DNA of 64,000 bases from Dermacentor variabilis (lineage: Eukaryota > Arthropoda > Arachnida > Ixodida > Ixodidae), in contig NC_134568.1 of assembly GCF_050947875.1 (NCBI RefSeq), forward strand, positions 252,411,267 through 252,475,266, written 5' to 3'. A program made the translations under genes and the position numbers. Below, piece by piece: positions 22,473-46,599 of this stretch. Position 1 is the stretch's first letter; each line of letters opens with the position of its first letter. The notes under the pieces are model-generated. The model searched no databases. It had not been told where the DNA came from and saw only the letters and a list, made by a program, of their open reading frames with translations.

Positions 22473-22803
22473 CATTGGTTATCACTAGTTATCACCATTC
22501 TGCTTGCGAATGTCATAATTTCTTATTTCTTGAAACCTCTTGTTACGTTTCGCCTACGACGCGCGGTATAGCCGGCGCGGATGCAACGGACGCGGGGGCT
22601 TCGTTCAAAGCGGCAGACATTTTGGCCCGTTCGGCGCCGCCGCTACGCCTCCCCGCCAAGCGCGTCCAGGCATGTTCCAATGCCACGTGTCTTCGTGTGT
22701 GCGCGTGTGTGTGGGTGTGCATGTTGCTGCCCACGCTTGTCAAAGCGCGGCAGCCGGGGAGAGGAGCTCCCCCAACTGTGAAGCGAGGAGGTCCGAGCGG
22801 CAC

Positions 22804-23047
22804 CGGCCCGGCGTATGCGCCACCTTCTCATCCCATTGTTCCCGAGCGGCGCGGCCCGGCGTATGCGCCACCTTCTCATCCCATTGTGCCCGAGCGGCGC
22901 CGGCACGACGGCTGCGCCACCTTCTCATCCCAACGTGCCCGAGCGGCGCCGGCACGACGGCTGCGCCACCTTCTCATCCCAACGTGCCCGAGCGGCGCCG
23001 GCACGACGGCTGCGCCACCTTCTCATCCCAACGTTCCCGAGCGGCAC
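22804..23047 (+). repeat. 49-bp tandem repeat inside 5' LTR, five units
   Basis: Five units of 48-49 bp share GCGCCACCTTCTCATCCCA and CCCGAGCGGC. Two begin CGGCCCGGCGTAT; three begin CGGCACGACGGCT. The block lies just upstream of the TATA box, where enhancer-like repeats are expected. Confidence 0.9.
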
Positions 23048-23098
23048 AGTCACGTGCTCGTCTTTAGAGGGGTTCCTTCTTGCCCTCAACTGCGAGAG

Positions 23099-23105
23099 TA
23101 TAAAA
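23099..23105 (+). promoter_or_regulatory. TATA box of 5' LTR
   Basis: TATAAAA lies about 115 bases upstream of the LTR AATAAA; the same box is at 29143-29149 in the 3' LTR. Confidence 0.6.
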
Positions 23106-23679
23106 GCAGCTGCCCCCGGACGCCAAGAGAGGCTCCGATTTCTTCTGTTGATTAACGTGCACTCCCGTCTCTCTACTTCGGTCGACCTGACCGCCAACTC
23201 TTTGCGATGTTAGAATAAACAAGTTGTTTTGTTGTTACCAGTCGACTCATGCTTTGCCGGGACCTTCGGATGCTTCCAGTTGTGCCCCAGGCCGCCAGGC
23301 CAACGCTACCCTTGGGGCTTGCGACCCAGGTGCAACAACGGGCGTCAGCGCTGAGTTCCCAACTACTGTCTGCCAGCGGTGAGATCGCGACAACGGAGGC
23401 CAGCAGCGAAGAGATGCAGTTGACTGTATGCTGAGCAGCACAACTACCATCCGGGAGCAGTGCAACGAGCCCTGTGTGATGACTGGTTGCCTGCAGCGGA
23501 ACGACTGCGCTGAATTCTTGGCTGCGAGGTTTGGTGAGTGCGGGACTTTCTTCTTCTGAGCTTTGCCAGGCTTTTGTTAGTGTCAGAAACAGAGCTGGTA
23601 ATTGTGGTTGTCATTGCTGCCGGGTTAGTTTGCGGCAAGACAATAATAGGCAGTAGAGAAAGCAGCATTCAGAGCAGCC

Positions 23680-25401
23680 ATGGATTTGAAGTCGTTGCGC
23701 AAACCGAAATTGCTGGAGCTTGCAAGAGAGTTGGGTCTGGATGTCTCAGACAAACTCAGAAAACCTGAACTGCTAAGGGCTATTCTTGAGTTAGAAGCTG
23801 AGGATGACGAGCTGTCGGAATGCTTTGAGACCATTGAGGAGAGGGAGACGGCAAAAAGACAGGAGCGCGAAATTAAAGAACAGAAAGAAAGAGAAGAGCG
23901 TGAACGTAAAGAACAGAAAGAGCGAGAGCAACAAGAGCGCGACCACGCTTTGGAAATGAAGCGTCTTGAGGTAGAGATGGAACGCGCTCGTAATGGAAGT
24001 CAGGCACACGGTGCAGGAGAACGCGTATTGTTCAAAATGACTGACCTGATGCGGCCGTTTAAGCTTGGAGAGGACATTGGTTTGTTCCTGGTTAACTTTG
24101 AGCGAACGTGCGAGAAGCAGGGGTTCTCTCGGGAAACGTGGCCACAGCGCTTGCTCACTTTGTTACCCGGCGAGGCGGCCGACGTAGTCGCTCGCTTCAA
24201 TAGAGAGGAGGCAGAGGATTTCGACAAAGTGAAATAGAGTCTGCTAAAAAAGTACAGGCTGTCAGCAGAGGCGTTCCGTCGGAAGTTTCGGGAAAATGAG
24301 AAAGGCAGAAGTGAGTCATATACGGAGTTTGCGTACAGGCTTATGTCAAACATGCAGGAGTGGCTCAAAGAAGAGAAAGCGTTTGGTGACCACGATAAAG
24401 TTCTGCAGTGCTTCGGGCTGGAACAGTTTTATAGTCGGTTACCTGAGAACGTGCGGTACTGGGTCTTGGATAGGCCAGACGTTTGTACGGTGGCTAAAGC
24501 CGCTGAGCTAGCCGAGGAGTTTGTGACGCGTCGGGCTCGCGGAGCTAAGGACTGTCAAAAGGGTGAATTTGGCTCGAAGTTTGAGAGGCCAAAGTTCACA
24601 CCCATGAGAGCAAAGGGGAACACACGTAGTGCGGATGCGAGTGAAAGCAGTGCGACCGAACCTAAGGAGACGGCGGCAGCCGAAGCCGAACGCAGAAAGC
24701 GGTTCGAGACGAGGCAAGCGCGCGTTTGTTATACGTGCCAGAAGCCGGGTCACTTTTCGGCGCAGTGTCCGGAAACAAAACCAAAAGTTGTGTTTTTGTC
24801 ATTATGCAGCACTGACGAGAACATGAAGCTTCTCGAGCCTTACATGCGAGACCTCCTCGTGAACGGGAAAGAGTGCCGAGTGCTTCGCGATTCCGCAGCT
24901 ACAATGGATGTAGTTCACCCCTCTTACGTAGAACCCCATATGTTCACGGGCGAGTGCGCATGGATCAAGCAAGCCGTGGAAGCTCGTAGCGTGTGTCTGC
25001 CCGTAGCAAAAGTGCTTATTGAAGGACCTTTCGGAGCGCTTGAGACGGAGGCGGCAGTGTCATCTATGCTGCCCCCCCAGTACCCGTACCTATTTTCGAA
25101 CAGGTCCGATCACCTCCTGCGCGAGAAGGGGCTTTTGTTTGGTGAGGCTAGCGTTCAGGCCTTAACCAGATCGAAGGTTCGGGAGCTCGCTGCAAAGGCG
25201 GTAGTTGCGGGGCCGACGTTATCAAACAATGAGAAAGGGTCAGAGGCGCAGCAAGCCGATATTCAGAGCACGCCCGAACTGAATAAAATTGAGTCTGTAA
25301 CGTTAAAGCCACCAGATACTGGAGAGGAAAATCCCGATGCGGGAAAGTTAGAACTATCTGCAGATTTAATTGTTCATCGCGCCTACGTCAGACGGACTTA
25401 A
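23680..25401 (+). pseudogene. gag: Gag and protease-like region of the Gmr1-like element (one in-frame stop)
   Basis: A true ATG at 23680 opens a 573-residue frame interrupted once by TAG at 24235-24237 (codon 186) and ending at TAA near 25399-25401. The first 50 residues (SLRKPKLLELARELGLDVSD) look like a SAP-type helix-extension-helix. A charged E/K/R coiled-coil stretch follows at about 60-110, then a retrotransposon gag domain (WPQRLLTLLPGEAADVVARF). A CCHC zinc knuckle C-x2-C-x4-H-x4-C lies at residues 350-363 (CYTCQKPGHFSAQC). After it comes a protease-like segment VLRDSAATMDVV, where DSA stands in place of the usual D-S/T-G. The stop most simply reflects GAG to TAG. Confidence 0.8.
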
Positions 25402-28151
25402 TAGGTTGCTAAAAGTCAGCCGGTCGGCTTTGATAGCCGAGCAAAAGAAGGATGGCAGCCTAGAAAACATACGCTGCATTGTCAAGGAAGGTATCGCCAA
25501 GAAAAATGCTCGCTTGGTGGAAAGAGGTGGGGTCCTGTACCGGAAGTATCTAGACCGCAGGGGAGTGGAGTTCGATCAGCTGATCGTGCCTCAGTGCTAC
25601 CGTCAGGATCTGTTGCGCTTGTCGCACGGGGGTTCGTGGTCCGGACACCTAGGAGTTAAGAAAACTAAGGACCGTCTCTTGCAAGAGTACTATTGGCCAG
25701 GGTGTTTTCGGGACGCAGACCATTTCGTGAGGACATGTGACACCTGTCAGCGGGTGGGCAAACCAGGGGACAAATCGAGGGCGCCGTTGAGATTGGTACC
25801 TATCATTACGGAGCCTTTTAGACGGCTCGTTATTGATAGTGGGACCTCTGCCGGTAACAGCCACAGGGTACAGACACATTTTGACTGTGATCTGCCCAGC
25901 GACAAAGTTCCCTGAAGCAGTGCCGCTTAAAGAACTCAGCTCAGTTGAGATAGTCAATGCACTACTGTCCATATTTGCGCGAGTTGGTTTTCCTGCGGAA
26001 ATCCAATCAGATCAGGGCACAGTGTTTACTAGCGCTTTGACGACCACTTTTCTCGAAAGGTGTGGGGTAAAGCTGTTACACAGCTCAGTGTACCACCCAC
26101 AGTCGAATTCCGTTGAGAAGCTCCACTCCGTCATGAAGCGCGTGTTGAGAGCATTGTGTTTTGAACATCAAACTGACTGGGAGCTGTGTCTGCCTGGGGT
26201 GATGTTTGCATTACGGACCGCGCCGCATGCGGCTACGGGGTTTTCGCCAGCTGAGCTGGTGTACGGTCGCTCGCTGCGATCTCCGCTTCGCATGCTTCGA
26301 GAATCGTGGGAAGGCAGGGGCGACGACCCAGTCGTGGTGGAGTACGTGCTTAAGCTCCTCGAACGCTTAAGAAGGGCACAGGAGTTGTCAGGTGAAGCAA
26401 TGGCAAAGGCCCAGCAGAGGGCCAAGGTTTATTATGATCGGACCGCCAGGGCCCGTCGTTTTGAGGTGGGCGATGAGGTCATGATATTGCGCAAATCGCT
26501 AAACAACAAACTAGACGTGCAGTGGGAGGGCCCAGCACGGATTGTTCAAAAACTGTCAGACGTCAACTACGTGGTGAGTCTGCCAGGAAAGCGGAAAGCA
26601 CAGCAAGTTTACCACTGTAATCTGCTCAAACCTTATAGACAAAGGGAAGCAGTAGTGTGCATGATGGTAAACGTTCCCGAAGAGCTTCCGGTCGAGCTTC
26701 CGGGACTAGGCTCAGTGACGAACAGAGAAGACACCGGTCAAGTCATTAGTAACCTTATCAGTAAAGCACCGCTGTCGCCTGAGCAGAAAACCGAACTACA
26801 CCAGCTCTTACAAGAGTTTCAAGGTCTGTTCTCTGAGAGGCCTGGTAGGACTTCTGTCCTTACTCATGATATAGAACTTACCTCCCCAGAGCCAGTACGA
26901 TCCAAGGCGTATCGGGTGTCACCCCGCCAGAACGATATTATGGAGGCTGAGGTAAAGAAAATGCTACAGCTCGGTGTTATTGAGGCAGATGAGAGTGATT
27001 ATACGTCCCCTTTGATTTTAGTTGAGGTACCGGGCAAGGAACCTCGTCCTTGCGTCGACTACCGCAGGCTTAATTCCATCACTAAGGATCAAATTTATCC
27101 GATCCCTAACATCGAGGAGCGCCTTGAGAAAGTTAGTAGCGCTCAGTTTATTTCCACCCTAGATCTTGTCAGGGGTTATTGGCAGGTTCCACTTACAGAA
27201 GAGGCTAGTAGGTATGCGGCGTTCATTTTACCAATGGGAACATTCCGTCCTAAAGTTTTGAGTTTTGGTTTGAAGAACGCGCCATACTGCTTTTCAAGCC
27301 TCATGGATAAAGTGTTGCGGGGACAGCAAGAATTCGCTTTACCGTATTTAGACGACGTAGCGATATTCTCCGCATCCTGGTCTGAGCATATGGCACACTT
27401 GCGGGCAGTGCTAACCCGCCTGCGCGAAGCGGGCTTGACAATCAAGGCTCCCAAGTGCCAGTTAGCACAGGCCGAGGTTGTCTACCTCGGTCACGTGATT
27501 GGTCAGGGTCGTCGCCGCCCCTCTGAAATAAAGGTGGCCGCTGTGCGAGACTTCCCGCAACCGCGCACGAAGACCGATATTCGGTCGTTCTTAGGTGTCG
27601 CCGGCTACTATCAGAGGTACATCCCCAGGTACTCTGATATCGCGGCTCCCCTGACGGATGCTCTAAGAAAAACAGAGCCCCAAACAGTCGTATGGGACGA
27701 GACAAAGGAAAGAGCTTTTAGCGCCCTAAAGAGTGCCCTAACAAGCCAGCCTGTGCTACGATCGCCAGACTATACAAAAGGGTTCGTTGTTCAGTGCGAT
27801 GCTAGTGAGCGAGGCATGGGCGTTGTACTGTGCCAACGGGAAAATGGAGAAGTAGAACACCCCGTCCTGTATGCTAGTCGTAAGCTGACCAGTCGTGAGC
27901 AGGCGTATAGCGCCACCGAGAAAGAGTGTGCGTGTCTCGTGTGGGCCGTTCAGAAATTGTCATGCTATCTAGCCGGCTCAAGGTTTATCATTGAGACGGA
28001 TCACTGCCCTCTCCAATGGCTGCAGACCATCTCTCCCAAAAATGGCCGCCTCCTGCGCTGGAGCCTCGCTTTGCAACAATATTCCTTTGAGGTGCGTTAC
28101 AAAAAGGGGAGTCTCAACGGTAACGCCGATGGCTTAAGTCGAAGCCCCTAA
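25375..28151 (+). pseudogene. pol: Integrase - reverse transcriptase - RNase H polyprotein of the Gmr1-like element
   Basis: The integrase starts at 25375-25915 in the +1 frame relative to gag. Its HHCC zinc-binding region is H-GGSWSG-H with CDTC (25624-25750), and the first catalytic Asp is in RRLVID. A frameshift at 25838 moves to an uninterrupted 772-codon frame (25833-28151). That frame contains IVGPLPVTATG, the second Asp (SDQG, residue 60), Glu 95 (YHPQSNSVEKLH), and the C-terminal WEGPARIVQKL module ending YHCNLLKPY. It continues without a break into RT (DYRRLN, TLDLVRGYWQV, YLDD at residues 505-508) and RNase H (QCDASERG, ATEKEC, ETDHCPLQW, GNADGLSR). The gag-to-pol frame change near 25375 could be programmed or mutational. 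Confidence 0.88.
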
Positions 28152-28633
28152 CGTAGGAATCAGCCTCAAAATTGTTTGTTACTGATGTTTTTCTTCCTGA
28201 GGCAGGATTTTTAACATATTGCTTTTGTTTAGTGTTTCAAAGTGATGATGTGCTTTCTAGTGCAATTTTCCAATTTGTGGACGCGTTCTGAGTGCTGCTA
28301 GACTACTGTAAGGAACTAGGCAGTGGTATAAAAGGGGAAAGAGCCTGGCAGGGCTTAGTGAGGGTTGTGCCGTGCTTGCTGACTGAGCGGTTGAGTTTCA
28401 GCGTAGTTCTAACGCTGGCCGGGAACGAGAACAAAAATGTGAACTCTCCCGAAGTCACTTTGCAGTGTCCCGTGCGAACCTGAACGAGAGAACGAGGCCT
28501 TCTCTGTGCGCTGCGCTCAAGAAATCGTCGAGGGACGCCCGACTTCGGTTATGAGCATCATCGAGCGACATCCCTCCGGACAGCGGATGCAGTCCCCTGA
28601 CCATCGGGATCTCCTTCCCCCGGCGGGGCGGTC
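28152..28633 (+). other. Internal spacer between pol and 3' LTR
   Basis: About 480 bases with no recognisable env or other domain; a short 63-codon frame at 28292-28483 has no motif. The end (CCCCCGGCGGGGCGGTC) is the likely polypurine-tract region just before the LTR. Confidence 0.5.
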
Positions 28634-29408
28634 TGTTACGTTTCGCCTACGACGCGCGGTATAGCCGGCGCGGATGCAACGGACGCGGGGGCTTCGTTCA
28701 AAGCGGCAGACATTTTGGCCCGTTCGGCGCCGCCGCTACGCCTCCCCGCCAAGCGCGTCCAGGCATGTTCCAATGCCACGTGTCTTCGTGTGTGCGCGTG
28801 TGTGTGGGTGTGCATGTTGCTGCCCACGCTTGTCAAAGCGCGGCAGCCGGGGAGAGGAGCTCCCCCAACTGTGAAGCGAGGAGGTCCGAGCGGCACCGGC
28901 CCGGCGTATGCGCCACCTTCTCATCCCATTGTTCCCGAGCGGCGCGGCCCGGCGTATGCGCCACCTTCTCATCCCAACGTGCCCGAGCGGCGCCGGCACG
29001 ACGGCTGCGCCACCTTCTCATCCCAACGTGCCCGAGCGGCGCCGGCACGACGGCTGCGCCACCTTCTCATCCCAACGTTCCCGAGCGGCACAGTCACGTG
29101 CTCGTCTTTAGAGGGGTTCCTTCTTGCCCTCAACTGCGAGAGTATAAAAGCAGCTGCCCCCGGACGCCAAGAGAGGCTCCGATTTCTTCTGTTGATTAAC
29201 GTGCACTCCCGTCTCTCTACTTCGGTCGACCTGACCGCCAACTCTTTGCGATGTTAGAATAAACAAGTTGTTTTGTTGTTACCAGTCGACTCATGCTTTG
29301 CCGGGACCTTCGGATGCTTCCAGTTGTGCCCCAGGCCGCCAGGCCAACGCTACCCTTGGGGCTTGCGACCCAGGTGCAACAACGGGCGTCAGCGCTGAGT
29401 TTCCAACA
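28634..29408 (+). repeat. 3' long terminal repeat (775 bp)
   Basis: Matches the 5' LTR but has four instead of five 49-bp units (28897-29091). TATA box at 29143-29149 and AATAAA at 29258-29263. The right flank starts CTCT, the target duplication. Confidence 0.9.
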
Positions 29409-29412
29409 CTCT

Positions 29413-42149: not shown

Positions 42150-42392
42150 GGTAGCGCAGTGGCTATATGGAGTTGTGCTTATAAGCTCGAGAGCGCAGGC
42201 TGGAATCCCAGCCGCGGCGACTGCATTCCATTTCGATGGGGATTAAATGCAAAAATGCCCATGTACCGTGCAGTCGGTGCACGTTAAAGAACCCCAGGTG
42301 GTCGAAATTAATCCAGAGTTCCTGACAACGATGTGCCCCACAATCATATCGCGGTTTTGGCATGTAAAATCCCAGAATTGTTTGTTATTGTG
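42150..42392 (+). mobile_element. tRNA-derived SINE (Ruka-like)
   Basis: The head GTGGTAGCGCAGTGGC (A box) and GGCTGGAATCCCAGCC (B-box region) are followed by the same body as the SINEs at 13870 and 22227 (GTGCACGTTAAAGAACCCCA, GGTGGTCGAAATTAATCC). It abuts the truncated gag of the second gypsy-type element, so either the SINE inserted there or a deletion joined them. Confidence 0.75.
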
Positions 42393-42910
42393 TGACGAAG
42401 ATTCCCCTTACACACGGCCAGTCGAATTCTTCGTTGGCGTCCGCTCTCCAATCTGTCATCAAGGAGCAGGTAGCCGACCACATTCCACCTTCTTTCCAGC
42501 AGGCTCCGGTTGCCGCTCCCCTGACGTACGTCGAAGTCGCTTCGAGGCCTGCACCACAGACCTACGGTCCCCTTCGCCCGCCTTTGCGCCCGCCCGTATC
42601 CGCTCCAGTCCGGCCACTGGTGCAGTATGCACGACGACAAGATCATTGGCGCACGGAAGACAATCGTCCGATTTGTTTTTATTGTGGCCGTGCTGGACAC
42701 GTAGCACGTCACTGTCGCCTGCTTACACCGAACGTCCCCAACAATGTGCGTCTATATGCGCCACGTTTCCAACAAGGCTGCAACTATTCTGACACCTTTG
42801 AATCTCCTGCCGTCGAGATCGCATTCTCCGGTCTCCGTTCACCTTCTCCTCGCCACCGCTTCCTTTCCCCCATGCACTGTCGGCGGAGCCCTCTGCGCCA
42901 GGAAAACTAA
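42393..42910 (+). pseudogene. gag: Gag remnant with zinc knuckle (second gypsy-type element)
   Basis: The frame contains the proline-rich linker before the knuckle and the motif CFYCGRAGHVARHC (C-x2-C-x4-H-x4-C), then an Arg/Ser/Pro-rich tail and a stop. The capsid part upstream is absent. Confidence 0.75.
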
Positions 42911-42939
42911 AAATCGCAGTTCAGGAGGCGAGAACTGCG

Positions 42940-43425
42940 GTGTCTGCGAAATGTATAAGGCCTCACACTTCCCCGAAAAACGTTATCGAAGTCGCAATAG
43001 AAGGAACATTGACGCTAGCACTTGTCGACACTGGCGCTGCACTTTCAGCGATAGATGCCCGTATTTGCCGCAAGATAGGAAAAGTGATGACGCCGCTTTC
43101 TGGACTGTCCCTTCGGACTGTCAACGCGCAGCACGTCGAGCCATCCGGCGCCTGCACCGCTCGTGTCGTCATTCAGGAGGTCCTCTATATCATAGAATTC
43201 ATCGTGTTGCCATCTTGTTCACACGACGTCATATTAGGTTGGGACTTTCTCTCCACACATCATGCGATCATTCACTGCGCCCGCGCCGAAATCGAGCTGT
43301 TTCAGTTCATATCAGCGATATTATCACTGACCAGAGGGACCCTTGTCACAAAATCACCGTTTCTGAAGACACCGTTATACCTGCCTGGTCTTCCGCCCTT
43401 GTCAGTATCTCTTGTGACTCTGTAG
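42940..43425 (+). pseudogene. Aspartic protease remnant (second gypsy-type element)
   Basis: LALVDTGAALSAIDARIC holds the active-site D-T-G-A, and HDVILGWDFLSTHHAII is the family's second conserved block (I-L-G-x-D-F-L). The frame then ends in a stop, before the RT region in another frame. Confidence 0.8.
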
Positions 43426-43522
43426 ATGACGGAACAGCTCTCTTCGCTCCGTCTGAACTTTTCGCCGCCGTTCACTACCACTGCCGTTCGCCGTCCTCGA
43501 GTTCAAAACTGGCGCCTCTCTG

Positions 43523-45360
43523 ATGTGCGTGTCAAACCCATCGGCCGAACCAATTACTTTACGTCGCCGTGAAAGCCTTGGCAGAGCAGAACCCCTGACC
43601 TCATCTTCAATATTTGACCCGATGGACGACTCCACTTATCTTGCTGCTCTCGAGGCACCGCGTCCTCAGCCACTGCCGCGTTCTTTTACGCCAGTGACCT
43701 TACGACGACGCAGCGTGACGAACTTCTTCGCTTGCTCCAAGGCTTCTCTTCGTCTTTTGACTGCCAAGCAACATCACTCGGCCGCACAACGACTGTTTCG
43801 CACACTATCAACACTGGGAGCCATGCACGAATTCGACAGCATCCCTACCGAGTATCGGCGACCGAAAGACGTGTTATCAATGACCAGGTGAACGATATGC
43901 TGAAACGCGGTGTCATCCAGCCTTCTAGTAGTCCCTGGGCATCACCAGTCGTCCTAGTTAAAAAAAAAAAGACGGCACCATACGATTTTGCGTGGATTAT
44001 CGAAGACTTAACAAGATTACCCGAAAGGATGTATACCCGTTGCCACGTATCGACGACGCCCTTGACTGTTTGCAAGGTGCGGAGTTTTTTTCCTCCTTAG
44101 ATCTCCGCTCTGGCTACTGGCAGGTGACCATGGCTGACGCTGACTGTTCTAAAACTGTGTTTGTAACACCAGACGGCTTGTATGAATTCACTGTAATGCC
44201 GTTCGGTCTGTACAACGCGCCCGCTACTTTTGAATGCATGATGGACCGCATCCTGCGCGGCCTGAAGTGGCACACTTGTCTCTGCTACCTCGACGACGTT
44301 GTAGTCTTTTCCCCTGATTTTCCGACCCATCTTCGGCGTTTACATCAAGTTTTGAGCTGTCTCCGGAATGCTAGGCTCCAGCTTAACTTAAAGAAGTGCC
44401 TATTTGCAGCTCGAAAATTGACTATATTAGGCCATGTTGTCTCCAAAAAAGGCATCCTTCCTGATCCTGCTAAACTTCGCGCCGTATCCGAATTCCCGAA
44501 GCCCACTAACTTAAAAACACTACACAGCTTCGTTGGCCTATGCTCCTATTTTCGACGTTTCGTTCGCAATTTCGCTACTGTGATCGCACCACTAAACCAA
44601 CTCCTGCAAGGCGACAATGAACTTTCTGCTTGGTCGGAAGCCTCCGATTATACCTTTACGACTCTTCGTTGCCTACTCACGTCTCCGCCGATCTTGCGCC
44701 TCCGCCGATCCTACTCACGTCTCCGCCGATCCAAGCGCCCTACAGAACTTCACACTGACGCCAGCGGTGTCGGCCTTGGTGCCGTGCTCGCACAGCGTCA
44801 GAACCCTAATGCCGAATTCGTGGTCGCTTATGCCAGTTGTACACTCATAAAAACTGAGGCCAATTACTCAGTAACAGAAAAAGAGTGCCTGACTATCGTA
44901 TGGGCTCTTCAAAAATTTCGCCCATATCTCTATGGTCGATCCTTTGACGTGGTGACGGATCATCACGCTCTTTGCTGGTTGTCTAACCTCAAAGACCCGT
45001 CGGGCCGCCTCGCTCGGTGGGCCTTCCGAATTCAGGACTATGATATGCGTGTCGTTTATCGCTCTGGACGCAGACACTCTGACGCCGATGCCCTCTCGCG
45101 CTTCCCAGTAACTTCCTACAGCAGTACTTCTACCTACAGACCTGATATTTCACCGCTTGACATCCTGGACATGGCCTCAGAGCAACGTAAAGACCCACGG
45201 ATCGTCATGATATCCGACTTTTTGTCAAATCCTCCGGCAGCTTCGGCACCTCGAGCGTTACGCCGACAGGCGCAGCATTTCACCATCCGCGACGGACTTT
45301 TGTACCGCCGCAATTACCACAATGACGGCCGCACATGGCTTTTCGTAGTGCCCCGCCACC
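43523..45360 (+). pseudogene. pol: Reverse transcriptase - RNase H (second gypsy-type element), frameshifted
   Basis: The N-terminal RT region (LKRGVIQPSSSPWASPVVLV) is in one frame until an 11-A run at 43960-43970. After it the frame from 43992 reads [44 protein letters not shown] and CYLDDVVVF (catalytic YLDD). RNase H follows ([47 protein letters not shown]). Just before RNase H a GTCTCCGCCGATC motif is repeated three times (about 44681-44731), replacing the normal linker. The A run is two longer than needed for the frame. Confidence 0.85.
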
Positions 45361-46420
45361 TTCGACAAGATATATATGCTCCGTTTTTCACTCTGATCCG
45401 CAGTGTGGTCACGGCGGAGTGTCGAAAACCTACACACGGCTTCGCCTACGATATTATTGGCGAGGTATGTGCAACTTCGTCCACAAATACGTACGCTCCT
45501 GCGTTGCCTGCCAACGCCGCAAATGTGTCCCGCATTTCTCCACCGCACCTCTCCAGCCGCTTTCCTGCCCAGCTCAGTCATTCGACCGTGTCGGCATTGA
45601 TTTATACGGGCCTCTTCCATCTACTGGCTCCGGCAACCGATGGCTTGTTGTCGCCGTAGCTCATTTGACACGATATGCCGAAACCGCCACCTTGCCTGCC
45701 GCATCAGCAAAAAACGTCGCGTCATTCATTCTGAACAACTTTGTTCTCCGCCATGGCGCACCCCGTGAACTGCTGAGCGATCGGGGTCGCGTATTCCACT
45801 CGGACGTCCTGCAGTCACTCCTATCTGAATGCCAAATTATTCACCGCACTACTACTACTTGTCATCCACAAACCAATGGCTTAACAGAACGATTCAACAG
45901 AACTCTTGGTGACATGCTATCAATGTATGTTGCGGCTGACCACTCCAACTGGGATCCTGTACTTCCATTCGTCACATACGCCTATAACACTGCCTCTCAA
46001 GCCACTACCGGATTCTCACCATTCTTTCTGCTTACGGTTCTCCCGTACCGGTCGGACCCTGCTGAGTGCTCACCTGTTTCCACGGTCGCTCAGTACGCCG
46101 AGAAATGCCGACAACTGGCCCGTTCTTTGACGTCTGCTCAACAGTGCCGCCAAAAAGAGCGCCATGACCTCAGCCCACCCCCTCACCCTTTCCCTATAGA
46201 CTCACTCGTGTGGCTTTGGGTACCGCCTGTTGCTGCCCCTGGCCTTTCGTCCAAGCTCCTCCCGAAGTACCACGGGCCCTACCGCGTGGTTGCGCAACCA
46301 TCACTTGTTAATTACGTGGTCGAGCCCGTGTCACGATCTCCCGATCTGCGTCGTCGGGGACGAGAGACTGTGCACAGTGACCGGCTGAAGCCATATTACG
46401 ATCCTCTCACCTCTTCCTAG
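45361..46420 (+). pseudogene. pol: Integrase (second gypsy-type element)
   Basis: The frame shifts near 45370. It then reads [20 protein letters not shown] with CVAC (HHCC region), [10 protein letters not shown] (first Asp), SDRGRVFHS (second Asp) and [12 protein letters not shown] (Glu, with 35 residues between Asp and Glu). It ends with a C-terminal YHGPYRVV module and [12 protein letters not shown] before TAG. It lies after RNase H, the usual gypsy position. Confidence 0.88.
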
Positions 46421-46599
46421 ATCGCCAGGATGGCTACTCTTCAATTCCGGGGGTGATTGTGACGAAGAAGATCGGCAGGCTAAAAAGCCCCGTTGCCATC
46501 GCGTGGCTCATACGCAGTTCGTTCACTGGCTGCGCCCTAGCTGCTGCTGCCGCGTTGGTCGCTGCTTCTATAGGACCCGAATAAACCCCCTTTACAATT

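What the first reader, a model, noticed from the sequence alone, without database searches (positions are those of the whole stretch)
25375..28151. Ty3/gypsy-type retrotransposon with integrase upstream of reverse transcriptase in a tick
Seen: one uninterrupted 772-codon frame runs from the integrase core (SDQG, VEKLH) and its C-terminal module straight into gypsy-type RT (YLDD) and RNase H. The integrase zinc-binding region lies further upstream. Known: ordinary gypsy elements have PR-RT-RH-IN; the Gmr1 group has PR-IN-RT-RH and was first described in deuterostomes. Inference: this is a Gmr1-like lineage in a chelicerate, intact enough to define LTRs, ends and target duplication. The other gypsy-type element in this window (42393-46590) has the normal order, so the two can be compared directly.
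Basis: partly seen in the sequence, partly recalled or inferred. Interest (0 to 1): 0.88.

Follow-up and report, generated by a model that had tools for sequence, protein, structure and literature searches.

The report
Integrase-first gypsy retrotransposon in a tick
This is a decayed copy of an abundant, recently active jumping element of what is very probably a tick genome; its integrase is encoded before its reverse transcriptase, a layout known from one rarely described group (Gmr1-like) and here read directly in a tick.

Summary
Window 22541-29408 is one LTR retrotransposon: gag (SCAN-type capsid, zinc knuckle), protease, integrase, RT, RNase H, with 824/775-bp LTRs and a 4-bp duplication CTCT. 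It is not a local rearrangement: all 40 scored DNA and all 150 scored protein matches to the IN-RT junction in the same genome, the window included, are full length at 98% or more, and 30 of 30 loci have H2C2-IN-RT-RH order. RT and IN trees separate integrase-first from standard-order elements. The Gmr1-like reading is supported, but as a new host record: such elements were already reported in crustaceans and an annelid, and no named Gmr1 sequence was in the trees. The window copy is broken (gag stop, two frame changes); 83 of 150 copies have one open frame of 1480-1560 codons. Unforeseen: the protease motif is Asp-Ser-Ala, not Asp-Ser/Thr-Gly, in 19 of 20 sampled copies and in 7 relatives, four of them named ticks; the domain shows purifying selection.

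The parts
22537..22540 (.). target-site duplication, left (CTCT)
   Evidence: flank read; 4-bp duplications also at 8 of 10 other copies
22541..23364 (+). 5' LTR, 824 bp, with TATAAAA (offset 558), AATAAA (offset 673) and a 49-bp tandem repeat
   Evidence: both window LTRs lack a 27-bp end segment seen in the other copies read
23680..24234 (+). gag, N-terminal part (first ATG at 23680), closed by an in-frame stop at 24235-24237
   Evidence: aligns with the start of P0008 and P0012
24268..24534 (+). SCAN-type capsid domain (PF02023)
   Evidence: E 1e-13
24721..24774 (+). CCHC zinc knuckle (PF00098)
   Evidence: E 2.3e-6
24844..25125 (+). aspartic protease domain, active-site motif DSAAT at 24889-24903
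   Evidence: structure model of the piece and Foldseek match to retropepsins, best 3slz E 3.2e-6; motif
25586..25759 (+). integrase zinc-binding domain (H2C2), in frame 25370-25915
   Evidence: E 1.1e-18
25863..26099 (+). integrase core (rve), in frame 25791-28151; SDQG and VEKLH follow in the same frame
   Evidence: E 3.9e-8; the first catalytic Asp lies in the other frame
26529..26633 (+). integrase C-terminal domain (p58_C)
   Evidence: E 2e-10
27036..27500 (+). reverse transcriptase (RVT_1, YLDD)
   Evidence: E 5.2e-30; closest solved relative Ty3 RT, E 8.7e-69
27693..28082 (+). RNase H
   Evidence: PF17919 E 4.7e-34 and PF17917 E 4.5e-36
28613..28633 (+). stretch next to the 3' LTR with a purine-rich core (putative polypurine tract)
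   Evidence: identical in 9 of 10 other copies, one base different in the tenth
28634..29408 (+). 3' LTR, 775 bp, TG...CA
   Evidence: 2 substitutions and one 49-bp unit different from the 5' LTR
29409..29412 (.). target-site duplication, right (CTCT)

Best explanation
A damaged copy of a high-copy, recently active Ty3/gypsy-type LTR retrotransposon family of the Gmr1-like kind. Inferred life cycle: the LTR promoter makes a transcript read as one Gag-protease-integrase-RT-RNase H polyprotein (a single frame long enough for this is shown for many copies); the SCAN-type capsid packages it; the protease must cut integrase free on both sides, or it acts as an IN-RT fusion; RT-RNase H copies the RNA; integrase inserts it, leaving a 4-bp target duplication (the duplication is shown). 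The integrase-first order is an old, inherited feature of the lineage. The window copy cannot supply its own Gag-Pol as read: gag has an in-frame stop and the frame changes between 25.33 and 25.40 kb and near 25.84 kb.
For: LTRs, ends, 4-bp duplication. Domain order. Of the 120 relatives listed of 1161, 113 have IN before RT, 6 show RT only, and the one apparent exception, P0041, has a second RT after its IN and reads as two elements in a row. Of the 120 listed relatives of the standard window element, 0 have IN first (80 RT-IN, 40 RT only). Same genome, window included: 40 of 40 scored DNA and 150 of 150 scored protein matches full length, 30 of 30 loci in the same order, 83 of 150 with one open frame of 1480-1560 codons. 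Trees: careful RT tree, the 24 rows of the integrase-first group one clade at 100/99; IN tree 35 against 18 rows, 100. pN/pS 0.17-0.25 in RT-RH, IN and PR.
Against: No named Gmr1 reference in the trees. No recognisable tRNA primer site (TGG) next to the 5' LTR. The protease motif is DSA, not D[ST]G. The rows came from searches seeded with the two window elements, which favours two separate groups. In 6 of 15 copies checked the protease and RT are in different phases, so the single frame is not universal.
Confidence: 0.92

Rival explanations
1. A local rearrangement, or two adjacent partial copies, that placed integrase in front of RT in this copy only.
For: Some copies of the family lie at a fixed short spacing (6095 bp), which can fake an order; P0041 is such a case at protein level.
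Against: No LTR match between IN and RT; the frame is open across the junction; 30 of 30 loci have the order; 150 of 150 scored protein matches cross the junction without a stop; relatives in other animals share it.
Confidence: 0.01
2. A separate integrase-first lineage of arthropods that reached the order independently of the vertebrate Gmr1 elements.
For: Ticks, spiders, the beetle and four unnamed rows form their own subclade at 100/100, with the DSA protease in some ticks and the beetle.
Against: All integrase-first rows form one clade in RT (100/99) and one side of a branch in IN (100); SCAN gag is listed for tick, beetle, frog, turtle, lizard and fish members (table).
Confidence: 0.05
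3. A Ty1/copia element, since copia has the integrase-first order.
For: Pol order only.
Against: RT matches PF00078 and, among solved structures, Ty3 RT best; H2C2 and p58_C integrase domains and SCAN gag.
Confidence: 0.005

Closest known systems
Gmr1-like clade of Ty3/gypsy (Goodwin and Poulter 2002, recalled, not read; described in passages of PMC3587641, PMC8220671, PMC6238403)
   Same: Integrase upstream of RT; gag related to the SCAN domain (passages of PMC3406341, PMC4592553)
   Different: Host is a tick (inferred); protease motif DSA; high recent copy number. Whether vertebrate members differ in copy number was not tested
Crustacean Gmr1-like elements GyRex4, Gychoro2, GyMaja1, GyLiva4 (PMC3587641, passages read)
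   Same: Arthropod hosts, placed near the Gmr1 clade
   Different: For R. exoculata the RT/RH and integrase pieces did not overlap, so the order was not read there; here it is read directly with LTRs and target duplication
Annelid LGF3 family of Lamellibrachia (PMC8220671, passages read)
   Same: Gmr1 clade in a protostome
   Different: Other phylum
Tick gypsy lineages Mag, CsRn1, Squirrel and Toxo of Ixodes scapularis (PMC4748124, passages read)
   Same: Tick gypsy elements with TG..CA LTRs and 4-bp duplication
   Different: Described there with two ORFs, gag and pol; Gmr1 and domain order are not mentioned in the passages read, so identity with Squirrel or Toxo is not excluded

Membership tests
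Ty3/gypsy (Metaviridae) | RT-RNase H of the Ty3 type | tested here: met
   PF00078, PF17917, PF17919; best solved match Ty3 4ol8, E 8.7e-69
Ty3/gypsy (Metaviridae) | LTRs TG..CA and short target duplication | tested here: met
   the last base of the window's 5' LTR is T, not A
Ty3/gypsy (Metaviridae) | Retropepsin-type protease fold | tested here: met
   predicted model matches retropepsins, 3slz E 3.2e-6
Ty3/gypsy (Metaviridae) | Protease motif D[ST]G | tested here: not met
   DSAAT in the window and 19 of 20 sampled copies; read as a variant within the family, since RT, IN, fold and LTRs all fit
Gmr1-like | Integrase upstream of RT | tested here: met
Gmr1-like | RT in one clade with integrase-first elements of deuterostomes | tested here: met
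   100/99
Gmr1-like | RT or IN grouping with the named Gmr1 element of cod | not tested
Gmr1-like | Gag capsid related to SCAN | tested here: met
   PF02023 E 1e-13; link between SCAN and Gmr1-like gag in passages of PMC3406341 and PMC4592553
Ty1/copia | copia-type RT | tested here: not met
   PF00078 and the Ty3 match; that copia RT has another Pfam family is recalled

The most novel reading that the evidence does not exclude
The tick branch of the integrase-first lineage spread, probably to thousands of copies, with a working retropepsin whose catalytic triplet is Asp-Ser-Ala, a change at a glycine usually held fixed in this enzyme class (recalled); a beetle element carries the same change, so it may have arisen twice or moved between hosts.
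Probability: 0.45. Interest if true: 0.5.

Novelty: new member of a known kind. Interest (0 to 1): 0.42.

Why it matters
It gives a directly read integrase-first gypsy element with ends, target duplication, a lower bound on copy number and coding state in what is very probably a chelicerate, and shows the arrangement as one lineage in the rows sampled, shared by arthropods, an oyster and vertebrates. Because SCAN domains of vertebrate transcription factors are traced to Gmr1-like gag (passages), SCAN-type gag in ticks and a beetle widens the outgroup for that history. The abundance in one genome makes the family a usable system for asking how integrase works when it precedes RT.

Tried and rejected
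Local rearrangement or tandem artefact: rejected. The 3794-codon frame reported for one copy was looked at in two pieces: the upstream piece is open in all three frames for about 4 kb, as a stretch of N would be, so it was dropped as an artefact (it is still one of the 150 counted). Viral contigs: no relative found in one scan. Primer: no TGG beside the LTR, no tRNA gene found in the window, longest exact complement of the presumed primer site in the LTR only 8 bases; left unexplained. The third protein search, meant to widen the standard-order set, returned plant elements in every row that bears an organism name; six were added to the first tree. An attempt to read LTR ends by a fixed motif failed because the other copies have a longer LTR end; ends were then read by pairwise alignment and by eye. 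Rows dropped: 18 of 240 relatives without a 300-residue RT-RH match, P0041 among them; the rest were thinned by identity; 45 rows were chosen by hand from 81 for the careful tree (the 80 plus gen_L003); genome loci L001 and L007 were left out for a stop codon. The IN tree was thinned to 53 rows. Paper searches (listings only) gave nothing on domain order in ticks.

Full report
What is there. It is part of an LTR element with both ends, 22541-29408. The LTRs are 824 and 775 bp; they differ by two substitutions and one 49-bp tandem unit. The 3' LTR ends in CA; CTCT stands on both outer sides. Upstream lie gag with a SCAN-type capsid and a zinc knuckle, then a protease domain, then the integrase zinc-binding domain.

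State of the copy. Pieces of the window align colinearly with P0001, one frame of 1349 residues from an unnamed source: gag 1-53 and 55-426, zinc-binding part 436-581, core to RNase H 582-1349. Against it the window copy has an in-frame stop in gag (24235-24237), a frame change between about 25.33 and 25.40 kb, and another near 25.84 kb inside integrase. So it is complete at its ends but cannot make Gag-Pol as read.

Not a local accident. In the same genome (2.48 Gb; the window is on its contig 1) the DNA of the junction 26560-27060 had 40 of 40 scored matches over all 501 bases at 98-100% identity (1285 candidates). The 200-residue junction protein had 150 of 150 scored matches over the full length at 98% or more and without a stop (35,235 candidates). 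Both include the window itself and are lower bounds. Thirty of the 40 DNA matches came with loci; all 30, one of them the window, have H2C2, IN, RT-RH in that order, and 18 of 30 keep the frame open over all 1029 codons tested. Of the 150, 83 have one open frame of 1480-1560 codons, which is the length of gag to RNase H here (23680-28148 would be 1490 codons), and 13 have less than the window's 786. Comparing phases without joining, 9 of 15 copies have protease and RT in one phase with the protease frame open to the end of the piece; the other 6 do not, among them three whose IN-RT frame is open over the whole locus.

Ends and age. For 10 other copies the two ends were fetched apart. Reading the aligned LTR pairs by eye, 8 of 10 show a 4-bp duplication next to the LTRs; in one the 5' LTR head is altered and in one the 3' end lies outside the piece. 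In the nine pairs that could be compared, LTRs differ by 1 to 14 substitutions over 652-803 alignment columns. The sampled copies are young. No absolute date is given, for lack of a rate.

Relatives. One search listed 120 of 1161 relatives. By blastp of window pieces, 113 of 120 have IN before RT, 6 show RT only, and P0041 at first read RT-IN; P0041 has a second RT after its IN, so it is two elements in a row. Among rows with an organism name tick proteins are nearest (Ixodes scapularis, Ornithodoros turicata; an Amblyomma americanum protein, P0012, is 98% identical in RT), then spiders, a beetle, frog, turtles, fish and an oyster. By my reading of the Pfam columns, 26 of 120 relatives carry SCAN and none of the 120 listed relatives of the window's other element.

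Trees. Of 240 relatives, 222 had an RT-RH match of at least 300 residues. In the quick tree of 80 rows a branch of support 99 holds all 45 integrase-first rows plus 3 RT-only rows and no standard-order row. In the careful tree of 45 rows the 24 rows of the integrase-first group (P0012, itself RT only, among them) form one clade at 100/99; inside it 12 rows form a subclade at 100/100: the window, named ticks, spiders and the beetle, and four rows without an organism name. A standard-order element of the same genome (L003) falls beside the 24-row clade with weak support (89/83) on a very long branch. The IN tree separates 35 integrase-first from 18 standard rows at 100; it has no outgroup. Agreement of RT and IN argues for an inherited order. 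Limits: the rows were seeded by the two window elements, apart from Ty3, plant rows and L003, and no named Gmr1, Mag, Mdg or CsRn1 sequence was present.

Protease. The active-site region reads DSAAT. A structure model of the 387-residue gag-protease piece (mean pLDDT 72; protease part mostly above 90) matches retropepsins, best XMRV protease at E 3.2e-6. The motif is DSAAT in 19 of 20 sampled genome copies; the pattern found no motif in the other. Of 120 relatives, 32 gave a readable motif by a fixed pattern: 7 DSAAT (four named ticks: Amblyomma americanum, Ixodes scapularis, Haemaphysalis longicornis, Ornithodoros turicata; three unnamed), 1 DSAAS (beetle P0029) and 24 D[ST]G, including three tick proteins with DSG. 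pN/pS is 0.25 for the protease piece (19 copies, chosen for having the motif), 0.18 for IN and 0.17 for RT-RH (18 copies of 30, chosen for an open frame). This points to a protease under selection despite the lost glycine; activity is not shown. In the one literature search for the motif, 8 of 853 papers holding two of three terms were listed and none of the 8 had Asp-Ser-Ala; that is weak evidence of novelty.

What is known. Gmr1-like elements have integrase upstream of RT (passages of PMC3587641, PMC8220671 and PMC6238403). They were reported in crustaceans as the first in protostomes (PMC3587641, passages) and in an annelid (PMC8220671, passages; PMC8556966, passages, lists Gmr1 among clades present in several phyla). 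The Ixodes genome paper names Mag, CsRn1, Squirrel and Toxo (PMC4748124, passages). In the held library no paper holds both gmr1 and tick as whole words; one holds gmr1-like and arthropod, the crustacean paper; the 33 papers with gmr1 and gypsy (listing) include no tick title. Subscription papers and Repbase were not searched. Goodwin and Poulter 2002 is recalled; Emerson and Thomas 2011 is not held and is known here only through passages of PMC3406341 and PMC4592553.

Verdict. The protease variant and the abundance are what a specialist would not expect.

Noticed in passing
24889-24903; copies L059-L078: Protease motif Asp-Ser-Ala in place of Asp-Ser/Thr-Gly, in 19 of 20 sampled copies and in 7 relatives, four of them named ticks, plus one beetle protein.
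   Followed up: partly
23340-23400 and 29390-29408; L039-L058: Both window LTRs lack a 27-bp end segment that the 10 other copies read carry in some form; that segment resembles the first internal bases (CCAGCGGTG twice), as if the LTR end had once been extended over the primer region.
   Followed up: partly
23365-23400: No TGG-type tRNA primer site follows the 5' LTR, though the first internal bases are conserved among copies; the primer is unknown.
   Followed up: partly
G000 contig 1, 11.79-11.83 Mb: Six copies in one orientation at an exact spacing of 6095 bp, about internal part plus one LTR: probably a tandem array sharing LTRs.
   Followed up: no
P0012 (Amblyomma americanum): Annotated protein joins SCAN gag directly to RT and lacks integrase: a gene-model artefact or an integrase-less deletion form.
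   Followed up: no
P0022: A 48% identical relative is filed under an Asgard archaeon metagenome bin, probably animal DNA in the bin.
   Followed up: no
42368-46420: Second gypsy-type element, order zinc knuckle, PR, RT-RNase H, IN, spread over all three frames.
   Followed up: partly
L059-L078 against L009-L038: Synonymous divergence among copies is higher in the protease piece (0.10) than in IN and RT (0.04), perhaps from recombination between subfamilies; the copies compared are not the same set.
   Followed up: no
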